Shown piece by piece: positions 3,985 through 39,914 of a DNA stretch of 64,000 bases. This stretch comes from Actinomycetota bacterium. GTDB taxonomy: Bacteria; Actinomycetota; Acidimicrobiia; Acidimicrobiales; MedAcidi-G1. Position numbers and translations under genes: made by a program. How positions within the stretch are numbered: position 1 is the stretch's first letter; the number at the start of each line of letters is the position of its first letter. Below the pieces are notes generated by a model that saw only the letters and a list, made by a program, of their open reading frames with translations, did not search any database and was not told where the DNA came from. The stretch is from the NCBI GenBank assembly GCA_014381745.1, contig JACNLA010000022.1, positions 1 through 64,000 of the forward strand, given 5' to 3'.

Positions 3985-3999
3985 CCATTTCTGACTGGT

Positions 4000-4016
4000 C
4001 CGGGCCACCACCCCGG
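4000..4016. terminator. Hairpin between convergent genes
   Basis: A short stem CCGGG (4000-4004) with CCCGG (4012-4016) lies in the 40-bp gap between the P450 gene and the convergent HAD gene. There is no T-run. It could serve both strands as a weak terminator. Confidence 0.35.
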
Positions 4017-4024
4017 GCAGAAGA

Positions 4025-6144: not shown

Positions 6145-6193
6145 GGCCGATGAGCCTACGGCGACCCTGTTGCCGACGCTCGGGTAGTTACGT

Positions 6194-6748
6194 TCAGGGA
6201 CCCTCGTAGGGGAACCCGAGGTCCGGGGCCGTCACAAGCGGTGCAAACGGGATACCAGCGGCCTCGGCAGCCGCACCGCAGGTTCCACCCCTGTCCACAA
6301 CTGAGAGGATCAGCACCGGTTCTGCACCCAGCTCACGCACCACCCTGGCCGCCTCGAGGGGTGAGGTTCCCCTCGTGACCGTGTCCTCACAGATGACAAC
6401 CCGGTCACCTGGAAGCAGGGCTCCGGCCAGGCGACCCTCGACGCCGTGGTCCTTTGAGTCCTTACGGATGCTGAAGGACCGGAGGCTGTGACCCCTGGTG
6501 GCGGCAACCGCTGCTATTCCGAACGCCACCGGGTCGGCTCCTGCGGCCAACCCACCGATGGCTGTCACGTCGCCGGGGATGACCTGGAGCGCCGCATCGG
6601 CGATGAGGAGAATCCCGTCGGACCGGCACGCCGACTGCTTGGCATCACAGAACCAGGTGCTTTGTCGTCCCGACTTGAGCATGAAGTCACCTGTGCGGAT
6701 CGAATGCTCCAGCAGGTGTTCGATCAGAGCGGACCGGCCTTCTCCCAT
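6194..6748 (-). CDS. pyrE: Orotate phosphoribosyltransferase
   Basis: A 184-residue enzyme joining orotate and PRPP to give orotidine 5'-phosphate in pyrimidine synthesis. The PRPP loop VVICEDTVTRGTS is clear, as are the N-terminal FMLKSGRQS strand-loop and the catalytic-loop Lys/His region SIRKDSKDHGVEGRL. It follows purM after 10 bp on the same strand, so pyrimidine and purine genes share a transcript here. The purine genes together supply and consume PRPP, which makes the linkage sensible. No other pyrimidine genes are in the window. Confidence 0.93.
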   Translation of the reverse strand: MGEGRSALIEHLLEHSIRTGDFMLKSGRQSTWFCDAKQSACRSDGILLIADAALQVIPGDVTAIGGLAAGADPVAFGIAAVAATRGHSLRSFSIRKDSKDHGVEGRLAGALLPGDRVVICEDTVTRGTSPLEAARVVRELGAEPVLILSVVDRGGTCGAAAEAAGIPFAPLVTAPDLGFPYEGP

Positions 6749-6758
6749 GGCAGCGACC

Positions 6759-7793
6759 CTAGCGACGGAGGTGAGCCACGCCGGAGCCTCCGACCAACTC
6801 TCCTATGACATGAGCCCGACGGTCATGGACGTCCAGCATGGCAACCACCTCGCCGGCCTCGCTGGCCGGAACAGCCAGAACCATTCCGATCCCCATGTTG
6901 AAGACCCTCTCCATCTCGGCATCGGCCACCCCGCCCATTGCCTGCAACTCCGTGAAGATCCTGGGGGCCTCCCACGAACCGGTGTCGACCACCGCGTCGA
7001 CCGTTCCGCCCAGTACCCGTGGAAGGTTCCCGGGTAACCCCCCACCAGTGATGTGTGCGACTGCGTGAACCTCGTGGGCGGCGATCACCGCCAGAACAGC
7101 AGGTGAGTAAATGAGGCTCGGTGCAAGCAGTTCTTCGGCAAGGCTTGAGTCGGCTCCCTTCCATGCCGGATCGTCGAGGTCCCGACCGGCAACCTCGAAG
7201 ACAAGGTGCCGTGCGAGGGAGAACCCGTTCGAGCGCAGGTTCGGGGACTCCAGGCCCACGAGCACGTCGCCGGCAGCGACTGCCGAACCATCCAGGAGCG
7301 CTGTTCGCTCAACTGCCCCGACGGCAAAGCCGACAAGGTCGAACTGATCGTCGGCCATCACCCCCGGATGCTCAGCCATCTCGCCGCCGATCAGGGCACA
7401 ACCGGCCTCGGAGCATCCGGCAGCTATACCAGAGACCAGTTGCCCGACCGACCCCGGATCGAGTCGTCCGACCGCCAGATAATCGAGGAAGAAGAGGGGC
7501 TCGGCGCCGACACAGACCAGATCGTCTACGCACATCGCAACCAGGTCGCGGCCGATCGTGTCGAGACGACCGGTCTGCCTGGCGATCTCTGCCTTGGTTC
7601 CCACGCCGTCGGTGGCCGAGACAAGCAGCGGATCCCGGTAACCCGACCGGGCGATGTCGAACAGCCCGCCGAACCCTCCGATATCGCCAACCACCTCGGG
7701 CCTGTAGGTGGCTCGAACGAGCGGTTTGATCAACTGGACGGCCTCGTCGCCGGCATCCAGGTCCACCCCGGCTGCCAGATAGTCGTCGACCAT
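6759..7793 (-). CDS. purM: Phosphoribosylformylglycinamidine cyclo-ligase (AIR synthetase)
   Basis: A 344-residue PurM that closes formylglycinamidine ribonucleotide to aminoimidazole ribonucleotide using ATP, step five of purine synthesis. Signature segments are the N-terminal YLAAGVDLDAGDEAV, the VSATDGVGTKAEIA motif, the DDLVCVGAEPLFFLDYLA motif and the HITGGGLPGNLPR region. Length is normal. Its first base coincides with the last base of purF, a one-base overlap that implies translational coupling. Cytoplasmic dimer in the family. Confidence 0.97.
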   Translation of the reverse strand: MVDDYLAAGVDLDAGDEAVQLIKPLVRATYRPEVVGDIGGFGGLFDIARSGYRDPLLVSATDGVGTKAEIARQTGRLDTIGRDLVAMCVDDLVCVGAEPLFFLDYLAVGRLDPGSVGQLVSGIAAGCSEAGCALIGGEMAEHPGVMADDQFDLVGFAVGAVERTALLDGSAVAAGDVLVGLESPNLRSNGFSLARHLVFEVAGRDLDDPAWKGADSSLAEELLAPSLIYSPAVLAVIAAHEVHAVAHITGGGLPGNLPRVLGGTVDAVVDTGSWEAPRIFTELQAMGGVADAEMERVFNMGIGMVLAVPASEAGEVVAMLDVHDRRAHVIGELVGGSGVAHLRR

Positions 7794-9385
7794 CAGGTTC
7801 TTCCGAACAGCCTGGCTGCGTCGTCGGTGGGCAGGTTCCCGTGAGGATCGTCTCTCAGTACGGGCATCGTCCGTTCGGTCCCGTCGCTCATGTCGGCTGC
7901 CTCGAGCAGGCTCTTTGAGAGGTTGACCGGTATCTCGACCGGGTATTCACCGGTGAGACAGGCATCACAGAACCCGGCCCCCACCGCACCCGTCGATGCC
8001 ATGAGGCGGTCGATGGTCAGGTAGGCGAGGCTGTCGACATCCAGGTACTCACGGATCTCGTCGACGGTCAGGTTCGCGGCCAACAGTTCGCCGCGGGCGC
8101 CGGTGTCCATTCCGTAGAAGCAGGGCCAGCGGTACGGCGGTGACGAGATCCGCATGTGTACCTCTGTCGCCCCGGCATCGCGCAGCATCCGCACCATCGC
8201 CCTCGTGGTGGTCCCCCTCACGATCGAGTCGTCAACCACCACCAGGCGCTGACCCTCGGTGCTGTCACGTAGGGGGTTCAACTTCATGCGGACCGCTGCA
8301 GCCCTGAGGGCCTGGGTGGGCGCGATGAACGTGCGGCCTATGTATCGGTTCTTGACAAGGCCCTGGCCGTAGGGGATGCCCGAAGCCCGGGCATAGCCCT
8401 CCGCCGCCGGCATACCCGACTCGGGAACGCCCATGACCAGGTCGGCTTCGACCGGTGCCTGTTCGGCCAGGGCCTCTCCCATTCGCACGCGGGCGTGGTG
8501 GACGTTCTGCCCGTAGAGCACCGCATCGGGCCGCGCGAAGTAGACGAACTCGAACAGGCAGAGTGCCGGCTCGACCACGTCCGGGGAGAACGGGTGGAAG
8601 GAGCGGCATCCCGAACCGTCGATCACGACAACCTCGCCCGGATCCAACTCACGTACCATGTGCGCCCCGATCACGTCCAGGGCCGGGGTCTCTGAAGCCA
8701 GGACCCAACCACCGTCAAGCCTCCCGAGGCAGAGCGGGCGGAATCCGCTGGGATCCCTCACACCGACGATCCGATCACGGTCGGCCAGAACGAGCGAGAA
8801 CGCTCCCCTCAGCGTGGGAAGCACGGCCAGCAGCGCAGCGTCGAAGGCCTCACCGGCCTCAAGCCCGGGCGTTGCCGACAACTCAGCGGCGAGCAGCTCC
8901 GCTATCAGGTCGCTGTCGGAGGTCACCGTTCCCGGCAGCATTCCGGCAGCACCGGCAAGCTCCTCGGTATTGACCAGGTTGCCGTTGTGGCCGAGAGCGA
9001 ACTCGAAGTGGTCGACTCCCCGGTAGACGGGTTGAGCGTTTCGCCATGTGCTGGAGCCCGACGTCGAGTAGCGGGTCTGTCCGATAGCGAGGCCACCAGT
9101 CAACGCAGCCAAGGTGCGGTCATCGAAGGCATTGGAGACGAGGCCCATGTCCTTCACAACGGTGAGGGTCTGACCGTCGCTGACGGCCATGCCCGCCGAT
9201 TCCTGCCCCCTGTGCTGAAGGGCGTAGAGGCCCAGATAGGTGAGGTGGGCCACGGGCTGTCCCGGAGCGAACACGCCGAAGACACCGCAAGCCTCCCTGG
9301 GTGTGTCGTCATCGGCGGAGAGGGGTTCGTCGAGGTCCGAAACGTGTGGTTGGGGGCCCGGGGAACGGCTCGACACCTGCGACAT
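7793..9385 (-). CDS. purF: Amidophosphoribosyltransferase
   Basis: A 530-residue PurF, the committed step of purine synthesis: PRPP + glutamine to phosphoribosylamine. The N-terminal 32 residues precede Cys33 in EACGVFGVFA, so a propeptide is probably removed to expose the catalytic Cys, as in the Bacillus type. The glutaminase domain shows LQHRGQESAG and GHNGNLVN. The PRPP loop VVVDDSIVRGTTT lies in the C-terminal transferase domain. Cys residues near the C-terminus (AGFCDACLTGEYP) may help hold an Fe-S cluster as in the Bacillus enzyme (inference). Start ATG at 9385, one base from the end of purL. Confidence 0.97.
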   Translation of the reverse strand: MSQVSSRSPGPQPHVSDLDEPLSADDDTPREACGVFGVFAPGQPVAHLTYLGLYALQHRGQESAGMAVSDGQTLTVVKDMGLVSNAFDDRTLAALTGGLAIGQTRYSTSGSSTWRNAQPVYRGVDHFEFALGHNGNLVNTEELAGAAGMLPGTVTSDSDLIAELLAAELSATPGLEAGEAFDAALLAVLPTLRGAFSLVLADRDRIVGVRDPSGFRPLCLGRLDGGWVLASETPALDVIGAHMVRELDPGEVVVIDGSGCRSFHPFSPDVVEPALCLFEFVYFARPDAVLYGQNVHHARVRMGEALAEQAPVEADLVMGVPESGMPAAEGYARASGIPYGQGLVKNRYIGRTFIAPTQALRAAAVRMKLNPLRDSTEGQRLVVVDDSIVRGTTTRAMVRMLRDAGATEVHMRISSPPYRWPCFYGMDTGARGELLAANLTVDEIREYLDVDSLAYLTIDRLMASTGAVGAGFCDACLTGEYPVEIPVNLSKSLLEAADMSDGTERTMPVLRDDPHGNLPTDDAARLFGRT

Positions 9386-28739: not shown

Positions 28740-29582
28740 ATGGCCAACCTGACGACCCTCGGACACGATGCCACCCTCACCGACATCGCTGCGGCGATGG
28801 ACGCTGACGGAGGTGTCATCGTGAAAGACCTGCTTCCCGAGACCTCCAGGCTCCAGTTGCTCGATGACCTGGCCGACACGTTCGATCAGACCGTCCCCGG
28901 CTCGAAGAGCGGGATAGAACACTGGGAGGGTTTCCACGGTGCAAACACAAGGCGCTTCTGCGGCCTGGCAGCCCGCAGCGACGCCTTCGTGAACCACGCC
29001 CTCCTGAACCCGACCCTTCTGGCAGTGGCCGACCACTACCTCCTGGAAAACGCCACCAGCTACTGGTTGAACACAGGACAGGTAATGGCCGTCGGTCCAG
29101 GCGAGCCCGCCCAGTACCTGCATCGGGACGAAACCAACTGGCCCGAGGCAATCGCCGACGGCCGCGAGATCACCGTCAGCTGCATGTTCGCCCTCAGCGA
29201 CTTCACCCGGGACAACGGAGCCACCGTCGTGATCCCAGGAACCCAGAACCATCCCGCCGAGGTAATACGGGGCGCGCAGTTTGCAGACGAAGAAACCGCC
29301 TACGCATCCATGCCCGCCGGCAGCGGCATGATCTACAGCGGCCGGGTGATCCACGGGGCCGGGCAGAACACGACCGACTCATGGCGCTACGGCATGCACG
29401 TCAGCTTTGTCGTGGGATGGCTCCGACCCGAAGAGGCCAGCCCTCTCGTGGTCGACAGGTCCCGAGCCACTGAGCTTCCCGAGCGGGCACGTGAACTGCT
29501 CGGCTGGAGTTCATACCACTCGGAGACCGGTGGAAGAACCTGGCTGGTCGACTTTGAGGACGCCTCGCTCCTCTTCGACTGA
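28740..29582 (+). CDS. Phytanoyl-CoA dioxygenase (PhyH)-family protein
   Basis: A 280-residue Fe(II)/2-oxoglutarate-dependent oxygenase of the PhyH family. The metal-binding HxD is in YLHRDETNW at about residue 128, the distal His in GRVIHGAG at about 205, and an Arg about 10 residues later could bind 2-oxoglutarate. Bacterial members hydroxylate diverse small molecules. The substrate is unknown. It stops 17 bp before the convergent methylthioinosine phosphorylase. Confidence 0.87.
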   Translation: MANLTTLGHDATLTDIAAAMDADGGVIVKDLLPETSRLQLLDDLADTFDQTVPGSKSGIEHWEGFHGANTRRFCGLAARSDAFVNHALLNPTLLAVADHYLLENATSYWLNTGQVMAVGPGEPAQYLHRDETNWPEAIADGREITVSCMFALSDFTRDNGATVVIPGTQNHPAEVIRGAQFADEETAYASMPAGSGMIYSGRVIHGAGQNTTDSWRYGMHVSFVVGWLRPEEASPLVVDRSRATELPERARELLGWSSYHSETGGRTWLVDFEDASLLFD

Positions 29583-29598: not shown

Positions 29599-30333
29599 TC
29601 AGGCCCACCGTTGCGCCAACCGTTCCGCCGCACCACCCAGAAGACAAAGCAGTGGCTCGACAGCGTCCTCCAGCACAGCGAAGATGTCCTCAAGGCTGAG
29701 ATCCTCTGAGCCAAGTCCAGCTGCCGGGTTTGACACCACTCCAACCGCTGCATACGGAAGGTCCAGTTCTCTGGCCAGCGCCACCTCCGGGTAGCCGGTC
29801 ATGCCGACCAGATCACCGCCGAAGCCCGCATACATGCGAATTTCGGCCGGAGTTTCAAAGCGGGGCCCGTTTGCACATACGTAGGTTCCACCGTCAACCA
29901 GACGTACACCCGCTGAGCCGGCCACCTCCGCCAGCAGCCGACGCAGGTCCGGGTCGTAGGGATCGGTCATGTCGGTGTGGCGAACCTCGTCATCAAAAAA
30001 GGTGTCCTCACGACCGTGCGTGAGGTTGATGAACTGGTCGATCAGCACCAACTCGCCGTTCCGGTATGCCGGGTTGATCCCACCACTCACCGCCGTGGCG
30101 AACACCGCCCGGGCACCTGCATCGTGGAGAGCCCAGAGGTTCGCCCGATAGGGGATGCGCTGCGGTGGAACGCTGTGGTCGGCACCGTGCCTCGGCAGAA
30201 ACACCACCGGGCATCCCATCCAGGTACCAGACACCAGACCCACGGAGCCGTAGGGGGTCGAAGCCTCCTGCTCCCTGGCACCCACGAGACCCGGCAGGTC
30301 ATAGAAACCACTTCCGGTGATCAGGCCGAGCAT
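29599..30333 (-). CDS. S-methyl-5'-thioinosine phosphorylase (MTAP/PNP family)
   Basis: A 244-residue purine nucleoside phosphorylase of the MTAP branch, phosphorolysing a 5'-substituted nucleoside to the base and a pentose 1-phosphate. TGSGFYDLPGL and FLPRHGADHSVPP are phosphate-site segments; GMTGYPEVALAREL binds the ribose. The base-site loop reads SNPAAG, as in Pseudomonas methylthioinosine phosphorylase, whereas MTA phosphorylases carry TDYDCW with the adenine-binding Asp. I therefore predict 6-oxopurine (hypoxanthine) specificity. It is the last gene of the minus-strand transporter/mtnA run, and a matching deaminase lies at 38361-39662. Confidence 0.85.
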   Translation of the reverse strand: MLGLITGSGFYDLPGLVGAREQEASTPYGSVGLVSGTWMGCPVVFLPRHGADHSVPPQRIPYRANLWALHDAGARAVFATAVSGGINPAYRNGELVLIDQFINLTHGREDTFFDDEVRHTDMTDPYDPDLRRLLAEVAGSAGVRLVDGGTYVCANGPRFETPAEIRMYAGFGGDLVGMTGYPEVALARELDLPYAAVGVVSNPAAGLGSEDLSLEDIFAVLEDAVEPLLCLLGGAAERLAQRWA

Positions 30334-30356
30334 GGTGAAACGGTAGCGACCACCGG

Positions 30357-31892
30357 TCAGTTGTCGGTCCCTGACAACATCAACCGACCCACGCGGTCAC
30401 GGTCGATCCCGTCGGCTGACTCAATGGCCACGATCTGGCCTCCGTAGATGACCGCCACCCGGTCGGCGAGACCCAGGACCTCGTCCAACTCCGCCGACAC
30501 CAGAAGGATCGCCATGCCGGCATCGCGATACTCGATGAGCCGGCGGTGGATGAACTCGATGTTGCCGATGTCGATACCGCGGGTCGGCTGTGCCGCGACC
30601 ATCACCTTGGCTTCGTGGGAGAACTCGCGCGCAGCCACGACCTTCTGCTTGTTGCCACCCGAGAGGGTCGCGACCATCGCCCCAATGTTCGACGGGCGGA
30701 CGTCGAACTCGGCCACGAGCCTTTCCGCATTATCCTCAACAGCCCCCGGACTCCTGATCCCGTGCCGGGAGTAGGGAGGCTGGTGATAACGGTTCAGGAC
30801 CATGTTGTCGGCAACGGTGTGTGCACCTATCAGGCCGAACTTCTCCCTGTCCTCAGGGATGTGTGACACCCCCATGGTGCTGATCTGGCGGGGAGACATG
30901 CCGGCAATCTCGACCCCCTCCAGAGTGATGGAACCCGAGACCACACCACGGAGGCCTGTTATGGCCTCTACAAGTTCGCGCTGTCCATTACCCTCCACGC
31001 CGGCCACACCGACCACCTCGCCAGCGCGGACATCAAGATTGATTCCGTTGAGGGACTGAGAGCGACGGTCGTCGTTGACCACCAGGTCGACGATGGTCAA
31101 CACCTTGTCTCCGGGTGACGCTGGGGTCCGCTCCAGGCTGAGTTCCACGGAGCGACCAACCATCATCGAAGCGAGGCTTGCCTCATCGGTCTCGGCCGGG
31201 ACAGCGCTCCCCACGACCTTCCCGCGACGCATCACGGTGATGTCATCGGCTACGGCCATGACCTCACGGAGCTTGTGCGTTATGAACACGACAGCAACCC
31301 CGGTGTCAGCCAGGCCCCGTAGGACACCCAGCAGGTGGGTCGTCTCCTGAGGGGTGAGAACCGCCGTAGGTTCATCCAGGATCAGGATGTCCACCTCGCG
31401 AAAGAGGGCACGAAGGATCTCCACCCTCTGCTGGAGCCCGATGGGCAGATCCTCGACACGGGCCCACGGATCAATCTCCAGGCCGAATCGTTCTGCAAGG
31501 GCCCTCACCACAGAAGCCGCCTCATCAAGATCCACGACACCGCGCCTCGTCGGTTCGTTACCCAGCACCACATTCTCAGCGACCGTCAGGACGGGAACCA
31601 GCTGAAAGTGCTGATGAACCATTCCGATCCGGCTGTCAATTGCGTCGCGCGGGCCGTTCAGGTGCACAACCTCACCGTTGCGTCGCACCTCGCCACTATC
31701 AGCCCGGTAGAGCCCGAAGATGATGTTGACAAGCGTGCTCTTGCCAGCGCCGTTCTCGCCCAGCAGGGCGTGAACGCGACCGCGCTCGACGCGAAAATCG
31801 ACATCCTCGTTGGCAAGCACGTCGCCGAATCGCTTGGTGACTCCCAGAACCTCGAGGGCCGGAGGCGCGGCCACGCTCACCGCGTCACTCAC
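30357..31892 (-). CDS. Nucleoside-type ABC importer, ATP-binding protein
   Basis: A 511-residue ATPase with two ABC domains in tandem. The first has Walker A GENGAGKST, the signature LPIGLQQRVEILRAL region and Walker B DILILDEPTAVL. The second has a degenerate P-loop (GVEGNGQRELVEA) but a good signature TLSGGNKQK. This is the arrangement of simple-sugar and BmpA-type nucleoside importers. I prefer the GTG at 31892, which overlaps the upstream permease stop by 8 bp; an in-frame ATG at 31955 would lie deep within the permease. Operon partners are the two permeases, mtnA and the phosphorylase, so nucleosides are the likely cargo. Confidence 0.9.
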   Translation of the reverse strand: MSDAVSVAAPPALEVLGVTKRFGDVLANEDVDFRVERGRVHALLGENGAGKSTLVNIIFGLYRADSGEVRRNGEVVHLNGPRDAIDSRIGMVHQHFQLVPVLTVAENVVLGNEPTRRGVVDLDEAASVVRALAERFGLEIDPWARVEDLPIGLQQRVEILRALFREVDILILDEPTAVLTPQETTHLLGVLRGLADTGVAVVFITHKLREVMAVADDITVMRRGKVVGSAVPAETDEASLASMMVGRSVELSLERTPASPGDKVLTIVDLVVNDDRRSQSLNGINLDVRAGEVVGVAGVEGNGQRELVEAITGLRGVVSGSITLEGVEIAGMSPRQISTMGVSHIPEDREKFGLIGAHTVADNMVLNRYHQPPYSRHGIRSPGAVEDNAERLVAEFDVRPSNIGAMVATLSGGNKQKVVAAREFSHEAKVMVAAQPTRGIDIGNIEFIHRRLIEYRDAGMAILLVSAELDEVLGLADRVAVIYGGQIVAIESADGIDRDRVGRLMLSGTDN

Positions 31893-32877
31893 GGCTATAT
31901 GGCTGCCCGATGGCAGCAGGCGGTCGAGCCCTACCAACGAAGCCGGCCAAAACAACGATGCAGACCACGTAGGGGATCATTCCGATGAACTGCGGATCGT
32001 CGGCCAGCCAACCCCTGAACTGAAGTTGGGTCTGCACCGCGCTGGCATAGCCAAATAGCAGGGCTGCACCCCAGATCCCGATCGGGTTCCAACGGCCGAA
32101 GATCATCACCGCCAACGCCACGAAGCCCCGTCCATTGGTCATCATGCGCTCAAAGGATCCGACGGCCTCGAGGCTGAGATAGGCGCCACCCAGCCCTGCG
32201 AGGCATCCGCCGGCAATGAGGTTCGTGTACCGGACCCGCGCAACCGAGATCCCGACGGTCTCGGCTGCGCTCGGCACCTCGCCCACGGACCTGGTCCACA
32301 GACCCCACCGAGTTCGGAACAGGATGAACCACACAACCCAGATGAGGATCAGGGATATGTAGGTGAGGGGACGGTTGATGAAGAACACCCTGCCGACGAC
32401 CGGAAGGTCGGCAAGCGGGCCGAGCGATACCTGGGGGGTCTTGCCGGAAGGCAGGGTGCGACCCTGCTGGAAGAAGTAGCTGCTGATCCCGAAGGCGGCG
32501 ATGTTGAGAACGGTTCCGGCAATTATCTGGTCGCCCAGCAGGGTCACCGAGAGCCCGGCCAGACCGGCTCCCATCAGGGCGCCAGTCGCCATTCCGGCCA
32601 GAACACCAGCCACGAGGCTGCCGGTCGAGGAGGCAACCATGAACCCGACAAACGCCGAAAGCAGCATCTGACCCTCGATGCCGATGTTGACGACCCCGGA
32701 ACGCTCACACATGACACCGCACAACGCACCGAAGATGAGCGGCGTGGACTGGCGTAGTGCGCTGGCCAGAACTGCCGTTGTCTGGGCCTGTTGGAACTCG
32801 GCGGTGAACATTGTTATGAGCACGAACACGAGGATCGTCAACACCCACCAGCGTGTACGTATGAACAGGTCGCTCAT
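31885..32877 (-). CDS. Nucleoside-type ABC importer, permease 2 (NupQ/YufQ-like)
   Basis: A 330-residue inner-membrane permease of the branched-chain/sugar/nucleoside importer family, with about eight hydrophobic segments and the typical LCGVMCERSGVVNIGIEGQM motif near residue 55. The ATG at 32877 overlaps the stop of the upstream permease by 4 bp (ATGA), so I prefer it to the TTG four codons earlier. It would form a heterodimer with the other permease and use the ATPase that follows. Confidence 0.92.
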   Translation of the reverse strand: MSDLFIRTRWWVLTILVFVLITMFTAEFQQAQTTAVLASALRQSTPLIFGALCGVMCERSGVVNIGIEGQMLLSAFVGFMVASSTGSLVAGVLAGMATGALMGAGLAGLSVTLLGDQIIAGTVLNIAAFGISSYFFQQGRTLPSGKTPQVSLGPLADLPVVGRVFFINRPLTYISLILIWVVWFILFRTRWGLWTRSVGEVPSAAETVGISVARVRYTNLIAGGCLAGLGGAYLSLEAVGSFERMMTNGRGFVALAVMIFGRWNPIGIWGAALLFGYASAVQTQLQFRGWLADDPQFIGMIPYVVCIVVLAGFVGRARPPAAIGQPYSRE

Positions 32878-33923
32878 GACGAACCCCAACCCGAGGTAAT
32901 CGAGACCTCAGCGACATCCTGGCGGGAGAAGAACCAACGAACCACTATCGGAGTCGCCACAAACAACAACATGAGCGCCTCGATGATGTCGGTGATCTCG
33001 GGTGACACGTCGGCGTTGAACTGCATCATCGAACCTCCGGCCTCCATGGCCCCGATAAGCAGGGCGGCGGGGATCACGCCGATCGGATTGTTCCGGGCGA
33101 GCAGCGCGATGGTGATTCCGTTGAACCCCAGGCCCGCGTTGAATCCGGGTTCGTACCTTCCGATGACACCCTGGGTCTCTATGGCACCGCCGGCACCGGC
33201 CAGGAACCCGCTGATCGCCATGGTGGCCACGACTATCCGTTTCACCGAGATGCCCGCGTATCTGGCAGCGTCGCCGTTCAGGCCAACGGAGCGGATCTCA
33301 AAGCCGAGGGTGGTCCGCTCCAGCAGGTACCAACAGCCGATGCTTGCCGCAACGGCAACCAGGAACCCTGTTGGCAGAGCACCCCACTGCGGGATTACGG
33401 CACTCTCCTCGACCGCCGGCGTCCGGGACAGGATCCCCTCGTCCTTCCATGGGTTCGAGGCCAACCAGTCCGTCAGGTTGAGGGCCACGAAGTTGAGCAT
33501 GATCGTGGTGATCACCTCGTGGGCTCCACGGGTGGCCTTCAGCACCCCGGCGATCGAACCCCAGGCTGCGCCGGCCAGAGCACCCACGGCAAGTGCAAGC
33601 GGAGCGTGGATGATCCAAGGCAGGCCCTCGAAGCCGAAACCCACAGCCGCAGCGAAGATGCCCCCGATCACGAGCTGGCCCTGGCCACCGATGTTGAAGA
33701 GCCCGGCGCGAAAGGCGAAAGCCACGGCCAGTCCACCCATGATGAGCGGGGTTGCCTTCTCGAGCGTACGTCCGATCGTCTTCTGGCTTGACAGCGATCC
33801 GTCGATCAGCGCGCTATACGCCTCGATGGGGTTGGCCCCGGACAGGGCGAGGATGATGGCACCGATTCCGAGCGCCAGGCCAACTGCGATGAGAGGGACC
33901 GCTACCGGTTTCAGCCATCTCAT
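32874..33923 (-). CDS. Nucleoside-type ABC importer, permease 1 (NupP/YufP-like)
   Basis: A 349-residue inner-membrane permease, paired with the one that follows. It begins with a hydrophobic anchor (PLIAVGLALGIGAIILALSG) and contains the family motif FRAGLFNIGGQGQLVIGG near residue 92. It has about nine hydrophobic segments. The upstream gap of 102 bp to mtnA may hold a separate promoter. A BmpA-type substrate-binding lipoprotein is normally encoded next to these genes but is absent here. Confidence 0.92.
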   Translation of the reverse strand: MRWLKPVAVPLIAVGLALGIGAIILALSGANPIEAYSALIDGSLSSQKTIGRTLEKATPLIMGGLAVAFAFRAGLFNIGGQGQLVIGGIFAAAVGFGFEGLPWIIHAPLALAVGALAGAAWGSIAGVLKATRGAHEVITTIMLNFVALNLTDWLASNPWKDEGILSRTPAVEESAVIPQWGALPTGFLVAVAASIGCWYLLERTTLGFEIRSVGLNGDAARYAGISVKRIVVATMAISGFLAGAGGAIETQGVIGRYEPGFNAGLGFNGITIALLARNNPIGVIPAALLIGAMEAGGSMMQFNADVSPEITDIIEALMLLFVATPIVVRWFFSRQDVAEVSITSGWGSS

Positions 33924-34025
33924 TGCGCTGCAGACCAGATGATGGCGGGGCCTGTTGTCACCGCCGCAGACTAGGTGGACGCGGCCACGTTTCCGGTGAC
34001 ACTGCCCGGGAGGCCAGTGTGCCAG

Positions 34026-35051
34026 TCACCCCTGCCCCGAGTCCAGCGATTCCCCACGGTCAAGCCTCACCACCCGGGTGTCGGTGACGATCGCCGTGAT
34101 CAACTCAGCGGGCGTGACATCGAACGCAGGGTTGAGGGCATGCGTGCCATCTGGAGCCGAGGCCACCCCCGCAAAGCAAACGACCTCGTCGTCACCCCGG
34201 TCCTCGATCTCGATGTCGTCGCCTGTAACGGTGGCCATGTCGATCGTGGACTCCGGAGCAACAACTACAAACGGGACCCTGGAATACCGTGCCGCCAGTG
34301 CCAGCGAGTACGTGCCGATCTTGTTTGCCGTGTCGCCGTTGGCTGCAATCCGGTCGGCCCCTACCAGGACCACGTGCACCGACCCAGTGGAGATGAGATG
34401 GGGTCCGGCCGAGTCGACGATCAACCTGAACGGTGCACCCATCTGCTGTAGTTCCCAGGCTGTCAGGCGCGCCCCCTGCAACAGCGGCCTCGTCTCAAGG
34501 GCAACGGCTTCTTCAAGGAGACCGCGTTCATGGAGGGTCTGGATCACGGCCAGAGCCGTCCCCCGCTCGACGCTGGCGAGGCCACCCGTATTGCAGATCG
34601 TGAGCGCCCGGACCGAGTCGGACCTACCTGTGAGCTCAACCACAAGGTCAGCGCCGTTGTCTCCCATTTTCACCGACGCGACCAACTCATCGTCTCTGAC
34701 CGCGTACGCCTCAGCCAGGACGGCGTCGAAGCCACCGTCTGAGGTGGCTACCACCCGGTCGACCATCTTCGCCAGGTTCACGGCAGTTGGCCGCGCTGAA
34801 CGAATCGACTCCACCGCTGCTGCAAAGGCCTCGGTCCCGACACCGTCCACCTTTGCGGCCAGGACAACGCCGAACGCACCGGCGACACCGATTGCCGGTG
34901 CCCCACGAACCGACAGCCGGCGGATGGCATCGACCAGGTCGGACACCGTCGCGATCTGCAACACCTCGACTGATGTCGGCAACTTCGTCTGGTCGACCAT
35001 CAAGATGGTGCCATCAACCCAGTCCAGGGTCTTTCCGCCAAGCTCGCCCAT
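34026..35051 (-). CDS. mtnA: S-methyl-5-thioribose-1-phosphate isomerase
   Basis: A 341-residue isomerase of the eIF2B-related MtnA family, converting methylthioribose 1-phosphate (and 5-deoxyribose 1-phosphate in some organisms) to the 1-phospho-ketose. The N-terminus KTLDWVDGTILMVDQTKLP is typical. The catalytic Cys lies in ICNTGGLASVE and the catalytic Asp in VGADRIAANGDTANKIGTY. It sits between the nucleoside transporter and the divergent cupin/SDR/aldolase operon, which places it centrally in a predicted salvage pathway. No mtnK, mtnB, mtnD or RuBisCO-like gene is nearby. Confidence 0.93.
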   Translation of the reverse strand: MGELGGKTLDWVDGTILMVDQTKLPTSVEVLQIATVSDLVDAIRRLSVRGAPAIGVAGAFGVVLAAKVDGVGTEAFAAAVESIRSARPTAVNLAKMVDRVVATSDGGFDAVLAEAYAVRDDELVASVKMGDNGADLVVELTGRSDSVRALTICNTGGLASVERGTALAVIQTLHERGLLEEAVALETRPLLQGARLTAWELQQMGAPFRLIVDSAGPHLISTGSVHVVLVGADRIAANGDTANKIGTYSLALAARYSRVPFVVVAPESTIDMATVTGDDIEIEDRGDDEVVCFAGVASAPDGTHALNPAFDVTPAELITAIVTDTRVVRLDRGESLDSGQG

Positions 35052-35131
35052 GATCCAGTCTCCGGGTTGTCGTCAGGTTACTAGTATCGTCCTGCGGCTC
35101 CCTGAACAACCCTGAGGATGTCGACGACCAT
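35052..35131. promoter_or_regulatory. Shared divergent promoter region, mtnA / cupin operons
   Basis: Only 80 bp separate the starts of mtnA (left) and the cupin gene (right), so both operons must be driven from here and are probably co-regulated. A TACTAG palindrome-like core (ACTAGT at about 35079) is the only notable element. I could not define convincing -35/-10 pairs for either direction. Confidence 0.4.
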
Positions 35132-35587
35132 ATGAACGCCGACCAGATCGCAGCCATTCTCGGGCTCGTGCCCCTGCCAGAAGAGGGCGGGATGTGGGCA
35201 CAAACCTGGCACGACGAACACGGATCGGCGATCTACTTCCTGATGCAACCAGACGATTTCTCAGCAATGCACCGCCTCAACCGGACCGAGTTGTGGCACC
35301 ACTACAGCGGTGCACCCGTCGACTTCCTGCTCTTGAACCCGGACGGATCTCACGAAACCCCGGTGCTGGGAAGTGACCTGACGGCCGGTGAACGCCCGTT
35401 CATGGCTGTACCGGCCGGTGTCTGGATGGGCGCATCCACAATGGGAGACTGGTCGCTCGTTGGAACCACGCTGGCTCCGCCGTACGACCCAGATGGCTTC
35501 GAGTTGGGAACAGCTGAACAACTCATCGAGGGGTTCCCTGAAGCTACAGCCCGTATCACCGACCTCGTAAGGGACAACCAGCCGTGA
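35132..35587 (+). CDS. DUF985 (cupin_5) family protein
   Basis: A 151-residue protein of the DUF985/cupin_5 family, a single-domain cupin of unknown function. Typical signatures are the N-terminal AAILGLVPLPEEGGMW, GSAIYFLMQPDDFSAMHRL and ELWHHYSGAPVDFLLL, with His residues in the cupin barrel that could bind metal or ligand. It overlaps the next gene by 4 bp (GTGA) and is the first gene of the plus-strand half of the salvage locus. A role with a sugar phosphate or aldehyde is possible only by context. Confidence 0.88.
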   Translation: MNADQIAAILGLVPLPEEGGMWAQTWHDEHGSAIYFLMQPDDFSAMHRLNRTELWHHYSGAPVDFLLLNPDGSHETPVLGSDLTAGERPFMAVPAGVWMGASTMGDWSLVGTTLAPPYDPDGFELGTAEQLIEGFPEATARITDLVRDNQP

Positions 35588-36357
35588 CCGTGACCGAGTC
35601 ACCCCGGGACCTGTTGGACCTTTCCGGCCGCGTCATCGTCGTAACCGGTGCCGGCGGAGGCATCGGCTCCGGAATCGTCAACCGGCTCGTTGCCGCCGGA
35701 GCAACTGTCGTCGCCCACACCCGGTCATCGTCCACCGACCACCTTCTCGACCTTGACGGCAACCCCGTGTCGAGTCTCCGAGCCGACCTGACATCGCCCG
35801 ACGGTCCCACCAACGTCATCGACTCCACGCTCAGGGAATTCGACCGCCTGGACGGGCTGGTAAACAATGCCGGAATCCAGCCGGTCGTACCGTTCGACGA
35901 GATCACCGATGAGATCTGGTCCCAGACGATGGACGTCAACCTCAAGGCCGTTCACCACCTCACACACCTGGCGGCGACGGCCATGCGCTCACGCGAAACG
36001 GGCGGTTCGATTGTCCACATTGCCTCAATCGAGGCCCACCAACCGACCAGGGTGCACGGGCACTACGCCACCTCCAAGGCCGCACTGGTGATGCTGGCAA
36101 AGGCTGCGGCACTCTCATACGGCCGAGACGGCATCCGTGTCAACACGGTCTCACCCGGGCTCATCACACGACCCGGCCTGGACGAGGAATGGCCCGACGG
36201 GGTCGATCGCTGGAAGGCGGCAGCCCCACTCACCAGGCTCGGAACACCCGAGGACGTTGGCGACGCCTGCGTGTTCCTGTGCTCGGACCTCTCCCGCTGG
36301 ATCACCGGAATCGACCTTGTGGTCGACGGCGGGATACTCACCCGGCCCACGTGGTGA
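35584..36357 (+). CDS. Short-chain dehydrogenase/reductase
   Basis: A 257-residue classical SDR. The Rossmann motif TGAGGGIGSGI lies near residue 22, NNAG near 95, the catalytic Ser in IVHIASIE and the YATSK motif near 160. It ends with the typical DLVVDGGI segment. GTG start overlapping the cupin stop. In this operon it could reduce or oxidise the small aldehyde released by the aldolase encoded next, but sugar or alcohol substrates are equally possible. Sequence alone does not tell the direction. Confidence 0.92.
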   Translation: MTVTESPRDLLDLSGRVIVVTGAGGGIGSGIVNRLVAAGATVVAHTRSSSTDHLLDLDGNPVSSLRADLTSPDGPTNVIDSTLREFDRLDGLVNNAGIQPVVPFDEITDEIWSQTMDVNLKAVHHLTHLAATAMRSRETGGSIVHIASIEAHQPTRVHGHYATSKAALVMLAKAAALSYGRDGIRVNTVSPGLITRPGLDEEWPDGVDRWKAAAPLTRLGTPEDVGDACVFLCSDLSRWITGIDLVVDGGILTRPTW

Positions 36358-36383
36358 CCCCAGAGTCAAGTAGGAAGTGACCC

Positions 36384-38354
36384 GTGGAAGACCGCTGGGA
36401 CCTCTCAGTCTCCAAGAACCTCGATACCCCCCTCGACGAGTGCGTGTACGGGTCGCGTCTGATCGGCTCTGACCCGGCCCTCGTGCTTCACGGTGGTGGC
36501 AACACGTCGGTCAAGGCCCCGTTCACAGACATCACCGGATCCACCACCGACACGCTGTTCGTGAAGGGCTCCGGCTGGGACCTGGCGTCGATCGAACCTG
36601 AGGGGTTCGCCCCGCTGACCTTGCGGCGCCTAAAGAACCTCCTGGCGCTCGACTCGCTCTCCGATCCCGACATGATGCGCGAGCTCATGTCCGCCAGCTT
36701 CGACCCTGCGGCACCCGCACCGTCGGTAGAGAGCCTGCTGCACGCCTACATCCCCCACCCGGCGATCCTCCACAGCCACGCCGATGCGATCGTGTCGCTC
36801 ACAAACGTGGGTGATTCCGATGGATACGTACACGAGATCTTCGGTGACACCGTCGTCGTCATTCCCTACGTCATGCCCGGCTTCGACCTGGCCAAGGTCG
36901 TAGCCACATCGTGGCCCGACCAGGTCAACGCCGGCACCATCGGAATGGTGCTGTTGAACCACGGCCTCTTCACCTTCGGCGAAACCACACACGAGGCCTA
37001 TGTAAGGCACCATGAGCTGATCTCGAAGGCCGAACGATGGCTGGCTCAGAACGCTCCCCTCCCGGCTTCCACGGTTCCCTCTCTTCCGGACCTCGACGCG
37101 ATCGCCCTTGCCGGACTCCGGCGGGACGTCTCCGAGGCTGCGGGCCAGCCGATGCTCCTGTGCCGTCACTGCGACCAGGTCTCCACCCGGTTCGTCCAGC
37201 GCGGCGACCTGGAAAGCCTTGCAACAAGGGGCCCCCTGACACCCGACCATGTGATCCGCACCAAGCGGATACCGCTGGTGGGTCGGGATGTAGCCGCCTA
37301 CACGGCTTCCTACGAGAACTATTTCAGAGAACATGAACGCAGGGGGCGCACCGAGTTGACGATGCTGGACCCGGCTCCACGCATCGTGGTCGACCCCGAG
37401 CTGGGGGTACTGACCGCCGGCAGAACCATTGCCGCTGCAGACATCGCCTTTGACATCTACGAGCACACGATGCCAGCCCTTGAGCGGGTCGAAGACAACC
37501 TGGACCGTTACGAGGCACTCGACGCAGGCCACATCTTCGACGTCGAGTACTGGGACCTTGAACAGGCCAAGCTCCGCCTCGCCGGCCCACCAGCCGAGTT
37601 GGCTGGAATGGTCGCGCTGGTCACCGGAGCCGCCTCCGGAATCGGCCGGGCCTGTGCCGCCGAGTTGCTGGCACGCGGGTGCGCCGTGGGCGGCATGGAC
37701 ATCGACCCCGATATCGCAACCACCTTCGAGAGCCCAGCCTGGCTGGGCCGGACCGTGGACGTCTCCGATCCGGATGCCCAGGTAGCAGCGGTCGACGCAA
37801 TAGTCGAGCGCTTCGGTGGCCTCGACATCGTCCTCGTAGCCGCCGGGATCTTCGGCGCCAGCGCACCCATCAGTGCTCTCGACTCCGGTGACTACCGGAG
37901 GGTCCAGGATGTCAACGTCGACTCCGTCGTCAACCTCCTGCACGCGACCCACCCGTTCCTGGCCAGGTCACCTGTCGGAGGACGTGTCTCGATCATCGGC
38001 TCAAAGAACGTGGCTGCCCCGGGGAAGGGAGCCCTGTCGTACTCGACCTCAAAGGCCGCCCTCAGCCAGGTCGCCCGTGTGGCAGCCCTCGAATGGGCCG
38101 ACGACGGCATCCGCGTCAACACGGTCCACCCTGACGCCGTGTTCGACACAGGACTCTGGAACGACGACCTGCTCAGGGAACGGGCCGACAACTACGGCCT
38201 CACCGTCGACGAGTACAAGACCCGCAACCTCCTGCAGACCGAGGTCACCTCGGCAGGGGTGGCACGGGTCGCAGTCGAGTTGTGCACCAACACGTTCTCC
38301 GCCACGACGGGCGCACACATCCCGATTGACGGCGGAAACGAGCGGGTCGTATAG
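36384..38354 (+). CDS. Class II aldolase fused to short-chain dehydrogenase
   Basis: A 656-residue two-domain enzyme of the RhaD-like aldolase/alcohol-dehydrogenase family. Residues about 1-400 are a class II aldolase with HGGGNTSVKAPF, the zinc-binding HSHADA at about 130 and a second His-containing LLNHGLFTFG. Residues about 415-656 are an SDR with TGAASGIGRACA and YSTSK. Relatives split rhamnulose 1-phosphate to DHAP and lactaldehyde and process the aldehyde. Here no rhamnose genes are present, while mtnA, an MTI phosphorylase and a deaminase are, so 5-methylthioribulose or 5-deoxyribulose 1-phosphate is a likelier substrate. GTG start, 26 bp after the SDR gene. Confidence 0.9.
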   Translation: MEDRWDLSVSKNLDTPLDECVYGSRLIGSDPALVLHGGGNTSVKAPFTDITGSTTDTLFVKGSGWDLASIEPEGFAPLTLRRLKNLLALDSLSDPDMMRELMSASFDPAAPAPSVESLLHAYIPHPAILHSHADAIVSLTNVGDSDGYVHEIFGDTVVVIPYVMPGFDLAKVVATSWPDQVNAGTIGMVLLNHGLFTFGETTHEAYVRHHELISKAERWLAQNAPLPASTVPSLPDLDAIALAGLRRDVSEAAGQPMLLCRHCDQVSTRFVQRGDLESLATRGPLTPDHVIRTKRIPLVGRDVAAYTASYENYFREHERRGRTELTMLDPAPRIVVDPELGVLTAGRTIAAADIAFDIYEHTMPALERVEDNLDRYEALDAGHIFDVEYWDLEQAKLRLAGPPAELAGMVALVTGAASGIGRACAAELLARGCAVGGMDIDPDIATTFESPAWLGRTVDVSDPDAQVAAVDAIVERFGGLDIVLVAAGIFGASAPISALDSGDYRRVQDVNVDSVVNLLHATHPFLARSPVGGRVSIIGSKNVAAPGKGALSYSTSKAALSQVARVAALEWADDGIRVNTVHPDAVFDTGLWNDDLLRERADNYGLTVDEYKTRNLLQTEVTSAGVARVAVELCTNTFSATTGAHIPIDGGNERVV

Positions 38355-38360
38355 ACACCG

Positions 38361-39662
38361 ATGGCTCAGGTCCGTTTCACCGCTGACATCGTGGTCACCT
38401 GCGACACCGACGACTCGGTGTACGCACCGGGCGTGGTCGACACGGTGGACGGGCGAATTGTCTGGGTGGGTCCGCCAGGGGATGCACCCGATGTCACCGA
38501 CGCGGTGGTGAACAACGTCGGTGGGTTGCTCATGCCCGGCCTTGTGAACGCCCACTGCCACACGCCGATGACGCTTGTGCGCGGGTCTGGCGACGGCCTG
38601 CCCCTGCACCGCTGGTTGACCGAGGCCATGTGGCCACGGGAAGGCCGGATGACGCCCGAGGATGCATGGTGGGGGATGACCCTCGGGTCTGCCGAGATGC
38701 TGCTTGCCGGGGTGACAACGAGTTGCGAGATGTACCTGTTCGAGGACTCGGTCGTCGACGCCGCCAGAGCATCGGGCGCCCGGCTGGTCATGACACCCGG
38801 CGTCGTAGCGGCGCTCCACTCCAGCGGCAACGACCGGACCGGGGAGATCTCCGAGTTCTTCTCCAGGCACCACGATCCAGCCGGACGGGTAACGGTGGGT
38901 GTCGCCCCCCACTCCGCCTACGACCTCGGAATAGACGCAGTGGTCGATCTGGCCGACCTGGCCAGGTCCCTCAACACGGTGCTCCACCTCCACCTCGCCG
39001 AAACCCGGGAGGAGAGTGCGGAACTTGAGGCCGCTCACGGCCGCTCAATCACCGAAATCCTCCACGACCACGGCGTGTTCGAGGGTCGGGTGCTGGCCGC
39101 CCACTGCGTCTGGGTGGACTCCACCGACATTGAACTGCTGGCCGCCAACGGTGTCGCCGTCGCCCACTGCCCCGTCAGCAACATGAAGCTCGGGTCAGGA
39201 ATCGCCCCTCTGGCCGCCATGAGGAATGCAGGTGTCACCGTCGCATACGGAACCGATGGTCCAGCCTCCAACGACTCGCTTGACCTCTGGGAAGAGGTGA
39301 AGATGGGCGCACTGCTCGCCCGGGTCCACTCGCTCGACTCGACCCTGATCACTGCCGTCGAAACGCTTGCCATGGCAACCCGTGACTCGGCATCCGCGGT
39401 GGGCCTGGCTGACACCGGCTGCCTGTCCGATGGCTACGCGCTCGACATGATCCGAATCGATCTCGACCAGAGCACGTTCGTACCGGTCACCGACACCGAC
39501 GAACTGCTCGCCCACCTGGCATGGTCCGGATCAAGCAGGAAGGTCACCGATGTCTGGATCGCCGGTGAGAAGGTGGTCGCCGACGGCGAGGTGCTGACGG
39601 TCGATACGGAGAGGGCCGTTGCCGAGGTCAGGGAACGGGCTGTTCGACTGGCCCGAGGCTGA
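38361..39662 (+). CDS. Amidohydrolase, MTA/SAH deaminase type
   Basis: A 433-residue TIM-barrel metal-dependent deaminase of the AtzA/TrzN-SAH deaminase group. Metal and active-site motifs are PGLVNAHCHTPM (about residue 61), HLHLAE (about 213), AAHCVW (about 246) and YGTDGPASND (about 299). The LPLHRWL and WPREG segments match methylthioadenosine/S-adenosylhomocysteine deaminases. It starts 6 bp after the aldolase-SDR gene. Deaminating MTA to MTI would make the substrate of the phosphorylase at 29599-30333. Confidence 0.9.
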   Translation: MAQVRFTADIVVTCDTDDSVYAPGVVDTVDGRIVWVGPPGDAPDVTDAVVNNVGGLLMPGLVNAHCHTPMTLVRGSGDGLPLHRWLTEAMWPREGRMTPEDAWWGMTLGSAEMLLAGVTTSCEMYLFEDSVVDAARASGARLVMTPGVVAALHSSGNDRTGEISEFFSRHHDPAGRVTVGVAPHSAYDLGIDAVVDLADLARSLNTVLHLHLAETREESAELEAAHGRSITEILHDHGVFEGRVLAAHCVWVDSTDIELLAANGVAVAHCPVSNMKLGSGIAPLAAMRNAGVTVAYGTDGPASNDSLDLWEEVKMGALLARVHSLDSTLITAVETLAMATRDSASAVGLADTGCLSDGYALDMIRIDLDQSTFVPVTDTDELLAHLAWSGSSRKVTDVWIAGEKVVADGEVLTVDTERAVAEVRERAVRLARG

Positions 39663-39752: not shown

Positions 39753-39823
39753 GCGGGTGTAGTTCAATGGTAGAACCCCAGCTTCCCAAGCTGATGACGG
39801 GAGTTCGATTCTCCTCACCCGCT
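39753..39823 (+). tRNA. tRNA-Gly (CCC)
   Basis: A 71-base cloverleaf: acceptor GCGGGTG (39753-39759) with CACCCGC (39816-39822), D arm with AATGGTA loop, anticodon loop TTCCCAA giving anticodon CCC, T loop TTCGATT, discriminator T39823. CCA is not encoded. It closely resembles bacterial tRNA-Gly(CCC), which reads GGG. Confidence 0.96.
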
Positions 39824-39914
39824 CCGTTCGGCCCACGCCACATGGCCTGAATCTATTTCTCGCTTCGCGCCTAAACCGTCACTGATCAAAGAGAGTTCGA
39901 GGCGAGAAGTGACC

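What the first reader, a model, noticed from the sequence alone, without database searches (positions are those of the whole stretch)
29599..39662. Two divergent operons that look like a complete route for 5'-methylthioadenosine / 5'-deoxyadenosine salvage through an aldolase
Seen: an MTAP-family phosphorylase with a 6-oxopurine loop, a nucleoside-type ABC importer, MtnA, a DUF985 cupin, an SDR, a class II aldolase-SDR fusion and an MTA/SAH-type deaminase, arranged back to back around an 80-bp promoter gap. Known: DHAP-shunt organisms use a phosphorylase or kinase, MtnA and a class II aldolase to turn MTA or 5'-deoxyadenosine into DHAP plus (methylthio)acetaldehyde or acetaldehyde. Inferred: here the path runs MTA to MTI (deaminase), to hypoxanthine + MTR-1-P (phosphorylase), to ketose-1-P (MtnA), to DHAP + aldehyde (aldolase), then alcohol or acid (SDR). 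Deaminase entry, the aldolase-SDR fusion, the cupin and the importer form a combination I do not know as a described system.
Basis: partly seen in the sequence, partly recalled or inferred. Interest (0 to 1): 0.85.

Follow-up and report, generated by a model that had tools for sequence, protein, structure and literature searches.

The report
5'-deoxynucleoside uptake and aldolase salvage cluster
Some uncultured actinobacteria carry a compact gene cluster that appears to import by-products of S-adenosylmethionine chemistry (5'-methylthioadenosine or 5'-deoxyadenosine) and break them down to a glycolysis intermediate, which looks like a new arrangement of a known salvage route.

Summary
In detail: nine genes in two divergent runs (29599-39662) encode an MTI-type phosphorylase, an ABC importer (ATPase, two permeases), MtnA, a DUF985 cupin, an SDR, an aldolase-SDR fusion and an MTA/SAH-type deaminase. 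The set recurs in other Acidimicrobiia in different gene orders. In 148 sampled class genomes all 9 with the fusion have MtnA (37 of 148 overall), 7 within 10 kb. The fusion belongs to a clade apart from the rhamnose enzyme RhaEW: rhamnose genes lie near 0 of its 40 sampled members but near 8 of 9 comparators. Cluster phosphorylases are of three kinds; 17 of 17 examined lack the histidine that holds the 5'-hydroxyl, which the genome's housekeeping PNP keeps. Best reading: a third form of the DHAP shunt, entered by deamination of MTA or 5'-deoxyadenosine and ending in DHAP plus an acid made by the fused dehydrogenase. The steps are known singly; the combination appears new. Against: nothing is assayed; the fusion often occurs without MtnA nearby; cupin and lone SDR are unexplained; the binding protein lies outside the locus.

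The parts
29599..30333 (-). MTI-type purine nucleoside phosphorylase
   Evidence: NF006599 S-methyl-5'-thioinosine phosphorylase 235.9 bits (cut-off 223, met); TIGR01694 MTAP 252.4 (cut-off 274.85, not met). Best solved relative 3ozb. Asn in base site, Leu in place of the 5'-OH His.
30357..31955 (-). ABC importer ATPase; true start probably inside this ORF, which overlaps the permease gene
   Evidence: PF00005, 2 stretches; no cut-off met among the 25 of 190 NCBIfam matches shown.
31885..32889 (-). ABC permease (BPD_transp_2)
   Evidence: PF02653.
32874..33923 (-). ABC permease (BPD_transp_2)
   Evidence: PF02653.
34026..35051 (-). MtnA, 5-methylthioribose-1-phosphate isomerase; the only IF-2B family match in this genome
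   Evidence: TIGR00512 368.4 bits (cut-off 279, met); one PF01008 match in the genome; Cys and Asp motifs kept (catalytic roles recalled).
35052..35131 (.). 80-bp divergent intergenic region with a block (ACTAGTATCGT) kept in 6 of 6 aligned sequences
   Evidence: Alignment of window, L002, L003, L004, L005, L008.
35132..35587 (+). DUF985 cupin (Cupin_5), function unknown
   Evidence: PF06172 107.4 bits; the 5 solved relatives bear hypothetical or uncharacterized names.
35584..36357 (+). stand-alone short-chain dehydrogenase/reductase
   Evidence: PF13561; no cut-off met among the 25 of 238 NCBIfam matches shown.
36384..38354 (+). class II aldolase fused to an SDR (PRK08324.2-4 family)
   Evidence: NF006196 889.7 bits (cut-off 831, met); TIGR02632 RhaD_aldol-ADH 402.9 (cut-off 567.75, not met). 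H130, H132, H193, Y553, K557 conserved in both fusion clades.
38361..39662 (+). amidohydrolase, probable MTA/5'-deoxyadenosine deaminase
   Evidence: PF01979; no cut-off met among the 25 of 30 NCBIfam matches shown, best 322.7 of 609; solved relatives include 4f0r (5-methylthioadenosine/S-adenosylhomocysteine deaminase) and 4gbd.

Best explanation
The cluster imports 5'-deoxynucleosides (MTA and/or 5'-deoxyadenosine) and degrades them by a deaminase-entry form of the DHAP shunt. Proposed steps: (1) ABC import with a PnrA/Bmp-type binding protein encoded elsewhere; (2) deamination to 5'-methylthioinosine or 5'-deoxyinosine; (3) phosphorolysis to hypoxanthine and 5-methylthioribose- or 5-deoxyribose-1-phosphate; (4) MtnA isomerisation to the ketose-1-phosphate; (5) aldol cleavage to DHAP and (methylthio)acetaldehyde or acetaldehyde; (6) oxidation of that aldehyde to the acid by the fused SDR, possibly handed over within one protein. 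Shown here: gene content, linkage, family membership, conserved residues. Inferred: every substrate, every flux direction, and steps 1 and 6 in particular. The cupin and the lone SDR have no assigned step.
For: Recurrence: window order in L002-L005, L008; other orders in L006, L052, L053, L055, L057, L058, L094, L104. In 148 sampled class genomes the fusion is over cut-off in 8, plus G074 where it is split over two contigs; all 9 have MtnA over cut-off (37 of 148 have it; hypergeometric 1.7e-6, ignoring kinship), 7 of 9 within 10 kb. Tree: 40 fusion rows form a 100/100 clade; MtnA lies near in 20 of the 40, rhamnose genes in 0 of 40. Phosphorylases: three kinds; the 5'-OH His is absent in 17 of 17 cluster enzymes examined (12 trimeric; 5 hexameric), present in the genome's other PNP at C31 and in 1g2o. 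In PfPNP, His7Phe and His7Ser lower the inosine/MTI ratio from 1.6 to 0.3 and 0.1 (PMC3885546, passages). A PNP over cut-off NF006054 is encoded apart. No ARD in this genome, nor over cut-off in any of the 9 class genomes, so no complete universal methionine salvage. Bmp binding proteins sit beside the importer in L010, L052, L053, L054, L055, L057, L104. C. aurantiacus RhaEW worked with NAD+ and showed no activity with NADH (PMC3870299, passages), hence the acid in step 6.
Against: No assay. In the genome's own family 33 of 48 genomes have the fusion, but of the 21 neighbourhoods read only 9 show MtnA; 12 do not, two of these on contigs under 8 kb, and the genome of L009 has no MtnA match. 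The deaminase meets no NCBIfam cut-off shown. PfPNP His7Ala raises the inosine/MTI ratio to 2.2, and the PfPNP-like enzymes of the relatives carry Phe at Tyr160, which that paper calls critical for the methylthio activity. Lack of the His is usual in the MTAP family (3ozb and 1cb0 lack it too), so only the PNP-type and PfPNP-type cases add independent weight, and they are from related genomes. L052 carries an adenine-type MTAP (Asp) in the same cluster as its deaminase, which would make deamination unnecessary there. The cupin was not found in L010, L052, L054, L079, L094, L107-L109 as fetched. No binding protein lies in the window cluster.
Confidence: 0.72

Rival explanations
1. Catabolism of ordinary purine ribonucleosides: importer, deaminase and phosphorylase give ribose-1-phosphate, MtnA makes ribulose-1-phosphate, and the aldolase gives DHAP and glycolaldehyde, oxidised to glycolate.
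For: The importer family and Bmp proteins serve nucleosides (recalled). L055 carries in its cluster a trimeric PNP over cut-off NF006054 (314.7 of 218) and L053 has a near copy. L010 has a UPRTase and an Indigoidine_A (PsuG-type, recalled) gene upstream of MtnA, and L006 an adenosine deaminase nearby.
Against: 5'-OH His absent in 17 of 17 cluster phosphorylases examined, including the PNP-type ones (Gly), but kept in the genome's separate PNP. MtnA meets the MTR-1-P isomerase equivalog cut-off; the ribose-1,5-bisphosphate isomerase model is far below (152.4 of 314.1).
Confidence: 0.14
2. A methionine or isoprenoid salvage route in which the cupin acts on an MTA-derived sugar phosphate (as the cupin methylsulfurylase of the R. 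rubrum MTA-isoprenoid shunt does), with the aldolase domain serving another step.
For: A cupin lies in the operon; a cupin-superfamily enzyme acts in that shunt (PMC6302742, passages).
Against: No ARD. No RuBisCO family among the 20 window proteins scanned (the genome was not searched for it). The cupin was not found in several loci that keep MtnA and the fusion (L010, L052, L094, L107-L109).
Confidence: 0.06
3. Use of rhamnose, fucose or another 6-deoxyhexose by a RhaEW-type enzyme.
For: The fusion has the architecture of RhaEW (PMC3870299, passages).
Against: TIGR02632 not met. Rhamnose isomerase or rhamnulokinase matches in 0 of 40 loci of its clade against strong ones in 8 of 9 comparators (the ninth, L065, has only a weak kinase match and carries a ribulokinase). 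Comparators form another clade. No sugar isomerase other than MtnA and no kinase in the window cluster.
Confidence: 0.04
4. Salvage of an AI-2-like or S-ribosylhomocysteine-derived five-carbon compound.
For: L079 has a thiolase over cut-off NF006081 (3-hydroxy-5-phosphonooxypentane-2,4-dione thiolase, LsrF type) after the fusion; L053 has an ABM-domain gene in the cluster.
Against: None of the nine window cluster proteins belongs to such a family; the LsrF hint comes from one distant locus and the ABM one from L053 and L055 only.
Confidence: 0.04

Closest known systems
DHAP shunt (MtnN+MtnK or MtnP, MtnA, Ald2/DrdA) of E. coli, R. rubrum, B. thuringiensis
   Same: MtnA (or DrdI) plus an aldolase cleaving the 5-deoxy or 5-methylthio ketose-1-phosphate to DHAP and aldehyde; in E. 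coli linked to a putative transporter gene (PMC10986504, section 3 read; PMC12632272 passages; PMC6079011 passages).
   Different: The two entries named there are nucleosidase + kinase or MtnP; here deaminase + 6-oxopurine phosphorylase. The aldolase is fused to an SDR; ABC importer, cupin and extra SDR are added.
P. aeruginosa MTA deaminase and MTI phosphorylase; M. jannaschii 5'-dAdo deaminase, MtiP and isomerase MJ0454
   Same: Deamination before phosphorolysis; an aldolase end is proposed for M. jannaschii (PMC6302742, passages).
   Different: The passages read mention no such fusion, importer or DUF985 cupin with them; the primary papers were not readable.
RhaEW (L-rhamnulose-1-phosphate aldolase/L-lactaldehyde dehydrogenase)
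   Same: Aldolase-SDR architecture and probable logic: the aldehyde is oxidised by the same protein (PMC3870299, passages).
   Different: 27-34% identity to the in-class comparators L059-L065, separate clade, no rhamnose genes nearby.
Fluorometabolite route of Streptomyces
   Same: 5-deoxy-5-fluoro sugars are formed, and recruitment of the MTR-1-P isomerase is called likely for S. cattleya (PMC7408626, passages).
   Different: Biosynthetic, not catabolic; other genes.

Membership tests
DHAP shunt | MtnA linked to a class II aldolase | tested here: met
DHAP shunt | Entry by MtnN+MtnK or by adenine-type MtnP | tested here: not met
   Window enzyme meets the MTI model and has Asn, not Asp, in the base site; no kinase among the nine cluster proteins. 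The rest of the genome was not searched for MtnK
DHAP shunt | Aldolase cleaves 5-deoxyribulose-1-P or MTRu-1-P | not testable with these tools
   Needs enzyme assay
RhaEW | NCBIfam TIGR02632 cut-off | tested here: not met
   402.9 of 567.75 bits
RhaEW | Encoded within rha loci | tested here: not met
   0 of 40 loci of the clade, the window (26001-48000) included, match rhamnose isomerase or rhamnulokinase queries; 9 of 9 comparators match, 8 strongly
MTI phosphorylase (PaMTIP type) | NF006599 cut-off and 6-oxopurine Asn | tested here: met
   235.9 of 223 bits; NPAAG loop
MTA phosphorylase (TIGR01694) | Equivalog cut-off | tested here: not met
   252.4 of 274.85 bits
MtnA | TIGR00512 cut-off; Cys and Asp motifs | tested here: met
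   368.4 of 279 bits; motifs (roles recalled)
MTA/SAH or 5'-dAdo deaminase | An NCBIfam equivalog cut-off | tested here: not met
   Best 322.7 of 609; 5'-deoxyadenosine deaminase model 262.9 of 522
Universal methionine salvage | Acireductone dioxygenase (PF03079) | tested here: not met
   No match in own genome
MTA-isoprenoid shunt | RuBisCO-like MTRu-1-P 1,3-isomerase | tested here: inconclusive
   Absent among 20 window proteins scanned; genome not searched for it

The most novel reading that the evidence does not exclude
Uncultured Acidimicrobiia feed on dissolved MTA and 5'-deoxyadenosine through a dedicated import-and-degradation unit in which a single aldolase-dehydrogenase protein disposes of the reactive (methylthio)acetaldehyde as an acid, and the DUF985 cupin and lone SDR carry out undescribed steps, such as freeing the methylthio sulfur. 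The PRK08324.2-4 fusion family would then be the aerobic end-enzyme of 5'-deoxynucleoside salvage, also where it stands alone.
Probability: 0.35. Interest if true: 0.72.

Novelty: new variant of a known kind. Interest (0 to 1): 0.55.

Why it matters
It would add a third entry to the DHAP shunt, give a likely role to an aldolase-dehydrogenase family now named by architecture, and link a DUF985 cupin to 5'-deoxynucleoside metabolism. MTA has been quantified in reef seawater, where the authors think sponge holobionts probably remove it, although inhalant-exhalent differences were not significant (PMC5234435, passages). A dedicated importer and degradation route would make its use by free-living bacteria directly testable.

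Tried and rejected
Rhamnose pathway: rejected by cut-off, clade and neighbours. Full methionine salvage: no ARD; the two other class II aldolases of the genome meet generic models (PRK06208, PRK07490) and no MtnB model appeared among their matches. PhyH gene 28740-29582 as a cluster member: it lies by the cluster in the close relatives that also share flanking genes and was not matched in L052-L058; the PhyH in L006 is not matched by the window's at 1e-8. A single orthologous phosphorylase: rejected, three kinds occur. AlphaFold model of the fusion (mean pLDDT 78.6) with Foldseek confirmed an aldolase domain like 3m4r plus an SDR; it did not inform specificity. A paper search for multi-domain Bmp fusions found none, one for DUF985 gave 11 papers, none of whose listed titles or abstract starts gives a bacterial enzyme function. 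Searches for print on this combination; no listed title or abstract start describes it, but many listings were cut at 10-25 papers and three key papers (North 2020, Miller 2014, Guan 2011) were not held.
Full report
What is there. The window lies on contig C7 of a 2.19-Mb, 44-contig assembly, 95.9% complete. The nearest loci in the species collection come from uncultured Acidimicrobiia and other Actinomycetota (record titles). On the minus strand: MtnA, two permeases, an ABC ATPase and the phosphorylase. On the plus strand: the DUF985 cupin, an SDR, the aldolase-SDR fusion and the amidohydrolase. A tRNA-Gly (39753-39825) follows, then an Aldedh-MaoC gene and phenylacetate-type genes, which I take as unrelated.

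Is the set real? One scan with the fusion gave 14 loci. Five (L002-L005, L008) keep the window order. L006 has the same families in another order, with an MtnA only 43% identical to the window's. I then sampled 148 genomes of the class. The fusion passes its cut-off in 8; in a ninth (G074) it is split over two contigs. MtnA passes in 37. All 9 fusion genomes have MtnA, 7 of them within 10 kb. Of these 9 loci the deaminase is seen in 7, the cupin in 6, the lone SDR in 7, the importer in 7 and a phosphorylase in 6; L054 and L056 are cut by contig ends, and L051 (G131) has the fusion with none of the others. The hypergeometric value 1.7e-6 ignores kinship. In a sample of 396 genomes of the phylum 4 match at E 1e-60 or better: this genome; G247, which has MtnA and importer genes nearby; and G158 and G186, whose fusions fall on the RhaEW side and lie by rhamnose genes.

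Results against exclusivity. In the genome's own family 33 of 48 genomes have the fusion, in all 6 genera. I read 21 of these 33 neighbourhoods (the window and 20 fetched): MtnA is near in 9 and not seen in 12. Four of the 20 stretches seem to be the same contigs as earlier loci (L093=L006, L105=L009, L110=L008, L111=L002, judged from contig lengths) and were left out of the second tree. Outside the phylum, L012-L015 (Gammaproteobacteria, Bacteroidetes, Burkholderiales) carry the fusion without the cluster, two of them on contigs or stretches of 5 and 12 kb. In the genome of L012 an MtnA lies elsewhere, beside an MTA-deaminase-like gene. Of the four genomes of L012-L015 three have an ARD-family match over cut-off. 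The fusion may therefore serve the same end in scattered form, or do something else.

Relation to RhaEW. On a 49-row tree the fusions split into a 40-row clade (100/100) and 9 comparators (100/100). Of the 40, 20 have MtnA nearby, 13 do not, and 7 are on short contigs. Rhamnose isomerase and rhamnulokinase proteins from the comparators match 0 of the 40 loci at 1e-8; of the 9 comparators 7 have a rhamnose isomerase match, L062 a rhamnulokinase, and L065 only a weak kinase match (it carries a ribulokinase). Family cut-offs for rhamnose isomerase are met in L061 and L063 but not in L059 and L060, and the rhamnulokinase cut-offs are not met in L062 and L063. RhaEW is said to be always encoded in rha loci, and the C. 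aurantiacus enzyme was active with NAD+ but not with NADH (PMC3870299, passages). His130, His132 and His193, which I take for metal ligands (recalled from FucA), and Tyr553/Lys557 of the SDR are conserved in both clades, while 24 positions differ consistently.

What is the substrate? The phosphorylase is the informative part. The window enzyme is closest to chain 3ozb and shares its NPAAG loop. Other clusters use an adenine-type MTAP (L052), a trimeric PNP (L053, L055), or a hexameric-type enzyme (L052, L053, L055, L057, L104) whose best solved relatives, searched for L055 only, are PNPs of Plasmodium (organism recalled). In 17 of 17 of these the histidine that holds the 5'-hydroxyl is replaced: 12 trimeric ones (window, L002-L006, L008, L094, L058, L052, L053, L055) have Leu, Val, Ala or Gly and 5 hexameric ones have Ile; the genome's separate PNP keeps it. 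Kinship reduces the independence of these cases, and MTAP-family members normally lack it. In PfPNP, changing His7 to Phe or Ser shifts preference towards MTI, but changing it to Ala does not (ratio 2.2 against 1.6), and the relatives have Phe at Tyr160, which the authors call critical (PMC3885546, passages). On balance I read 5'-modified nucleosides as the substrate, MTA against 5'-deoxyadenosine being undecided. Ten radical SAM matches in the genome show a possible internal source of 5'-deoxyadenosine; the importer points to an external one.

Import. The window cluster has no binding protein. In L010, L052, L053, L054, L055, L057 and L104 a Bmp (PnrA-like) protein stands beside the importer. 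In L006 it is a fusion of SBP_bac_3 and Bmp, with a further stretch at the cut end that resembles, by eye, the Bmp part of the window genome's protein. The window's genome has four Bmp matches. Three lie next to other ABC ATPase genes; the fourth is a Bmp-SBP_bac_3 protein cut by the end of contig C6 and is my candidate partner, unproved.

Comparison with the known. A paper on the E. coli DHAP shunt names two entries, nucleosidase + kinase and MtnP (PMC10986504, section 3). Deaminase entry is known from P. aeruginosa and M. jannaschii, for the latter with a proposed aldolase end (PMC6302742, passages). So each step has precedent, and I file this as a new variant: deaminase entry, an SDR-fused aldolase, importer and DUF985 cupin in one unit. 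My searches of the open library list no paper on this combination as far as titles and abstract starts tell; three key papers were not held.

Verdict. Most uncertain: the cupin, the lone SDR, the redox product and the role of fusions that stand alone.

Noticed in passing
L020:7027-9030 (own contig C6 end); L006:20025-21968: Binding-protein fusions that join unrelated folds in one chain: Bmp then SBP_bac_3 and a cut third part (own genome); a Bmp-like end (by eye), SBP_bac_3, Bmp (L006, beside the importer).
   Followed up: partly
L079:10012-10899: LsrF-type thiolase (NF006081, 473.2 of 297 bits) directly after the fusion in a distant actinobacterium that also has MtnA and importer genes nearby.
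   Followed up: no
L053:6406-6747: ABM-domain gene between the fusion and the SDR genes; a similar ORF (by eye) lies in L055 (8722-9024).
   Followed up: no
L104:12800-13528; L094:6485-7261: GntR-family regulators (UTRA type and FCD type) in or next to the cluster; the window cluster has no regulator gene.
   Followed up: no
L010:7331-8941: Indigoidine_A (PsuG-type, recalled) and UPRTase genes upstream of MtnA and the fusion, a pyrimidine-nucleoside flavour.
   Followed up: no
window 28740-29582: PhyH-family dioxygenase gene beside the phosphorylase, kept in close relatives together with the flanking genes.
   Followed up: partly
L006:2017-3084 and 3968-7913: Adenosine deaminase gene and a second importer of the same type (29-45% identity to the window's parts) a few kb upstream of the rearranged cluster.
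   Followed up: no
L082: In the gammaproteobacterial genome of L012, MtnA lies beside an MTA-deaminase-like gene, away from the aldolase-SDR fusion.
   Followed up: partly
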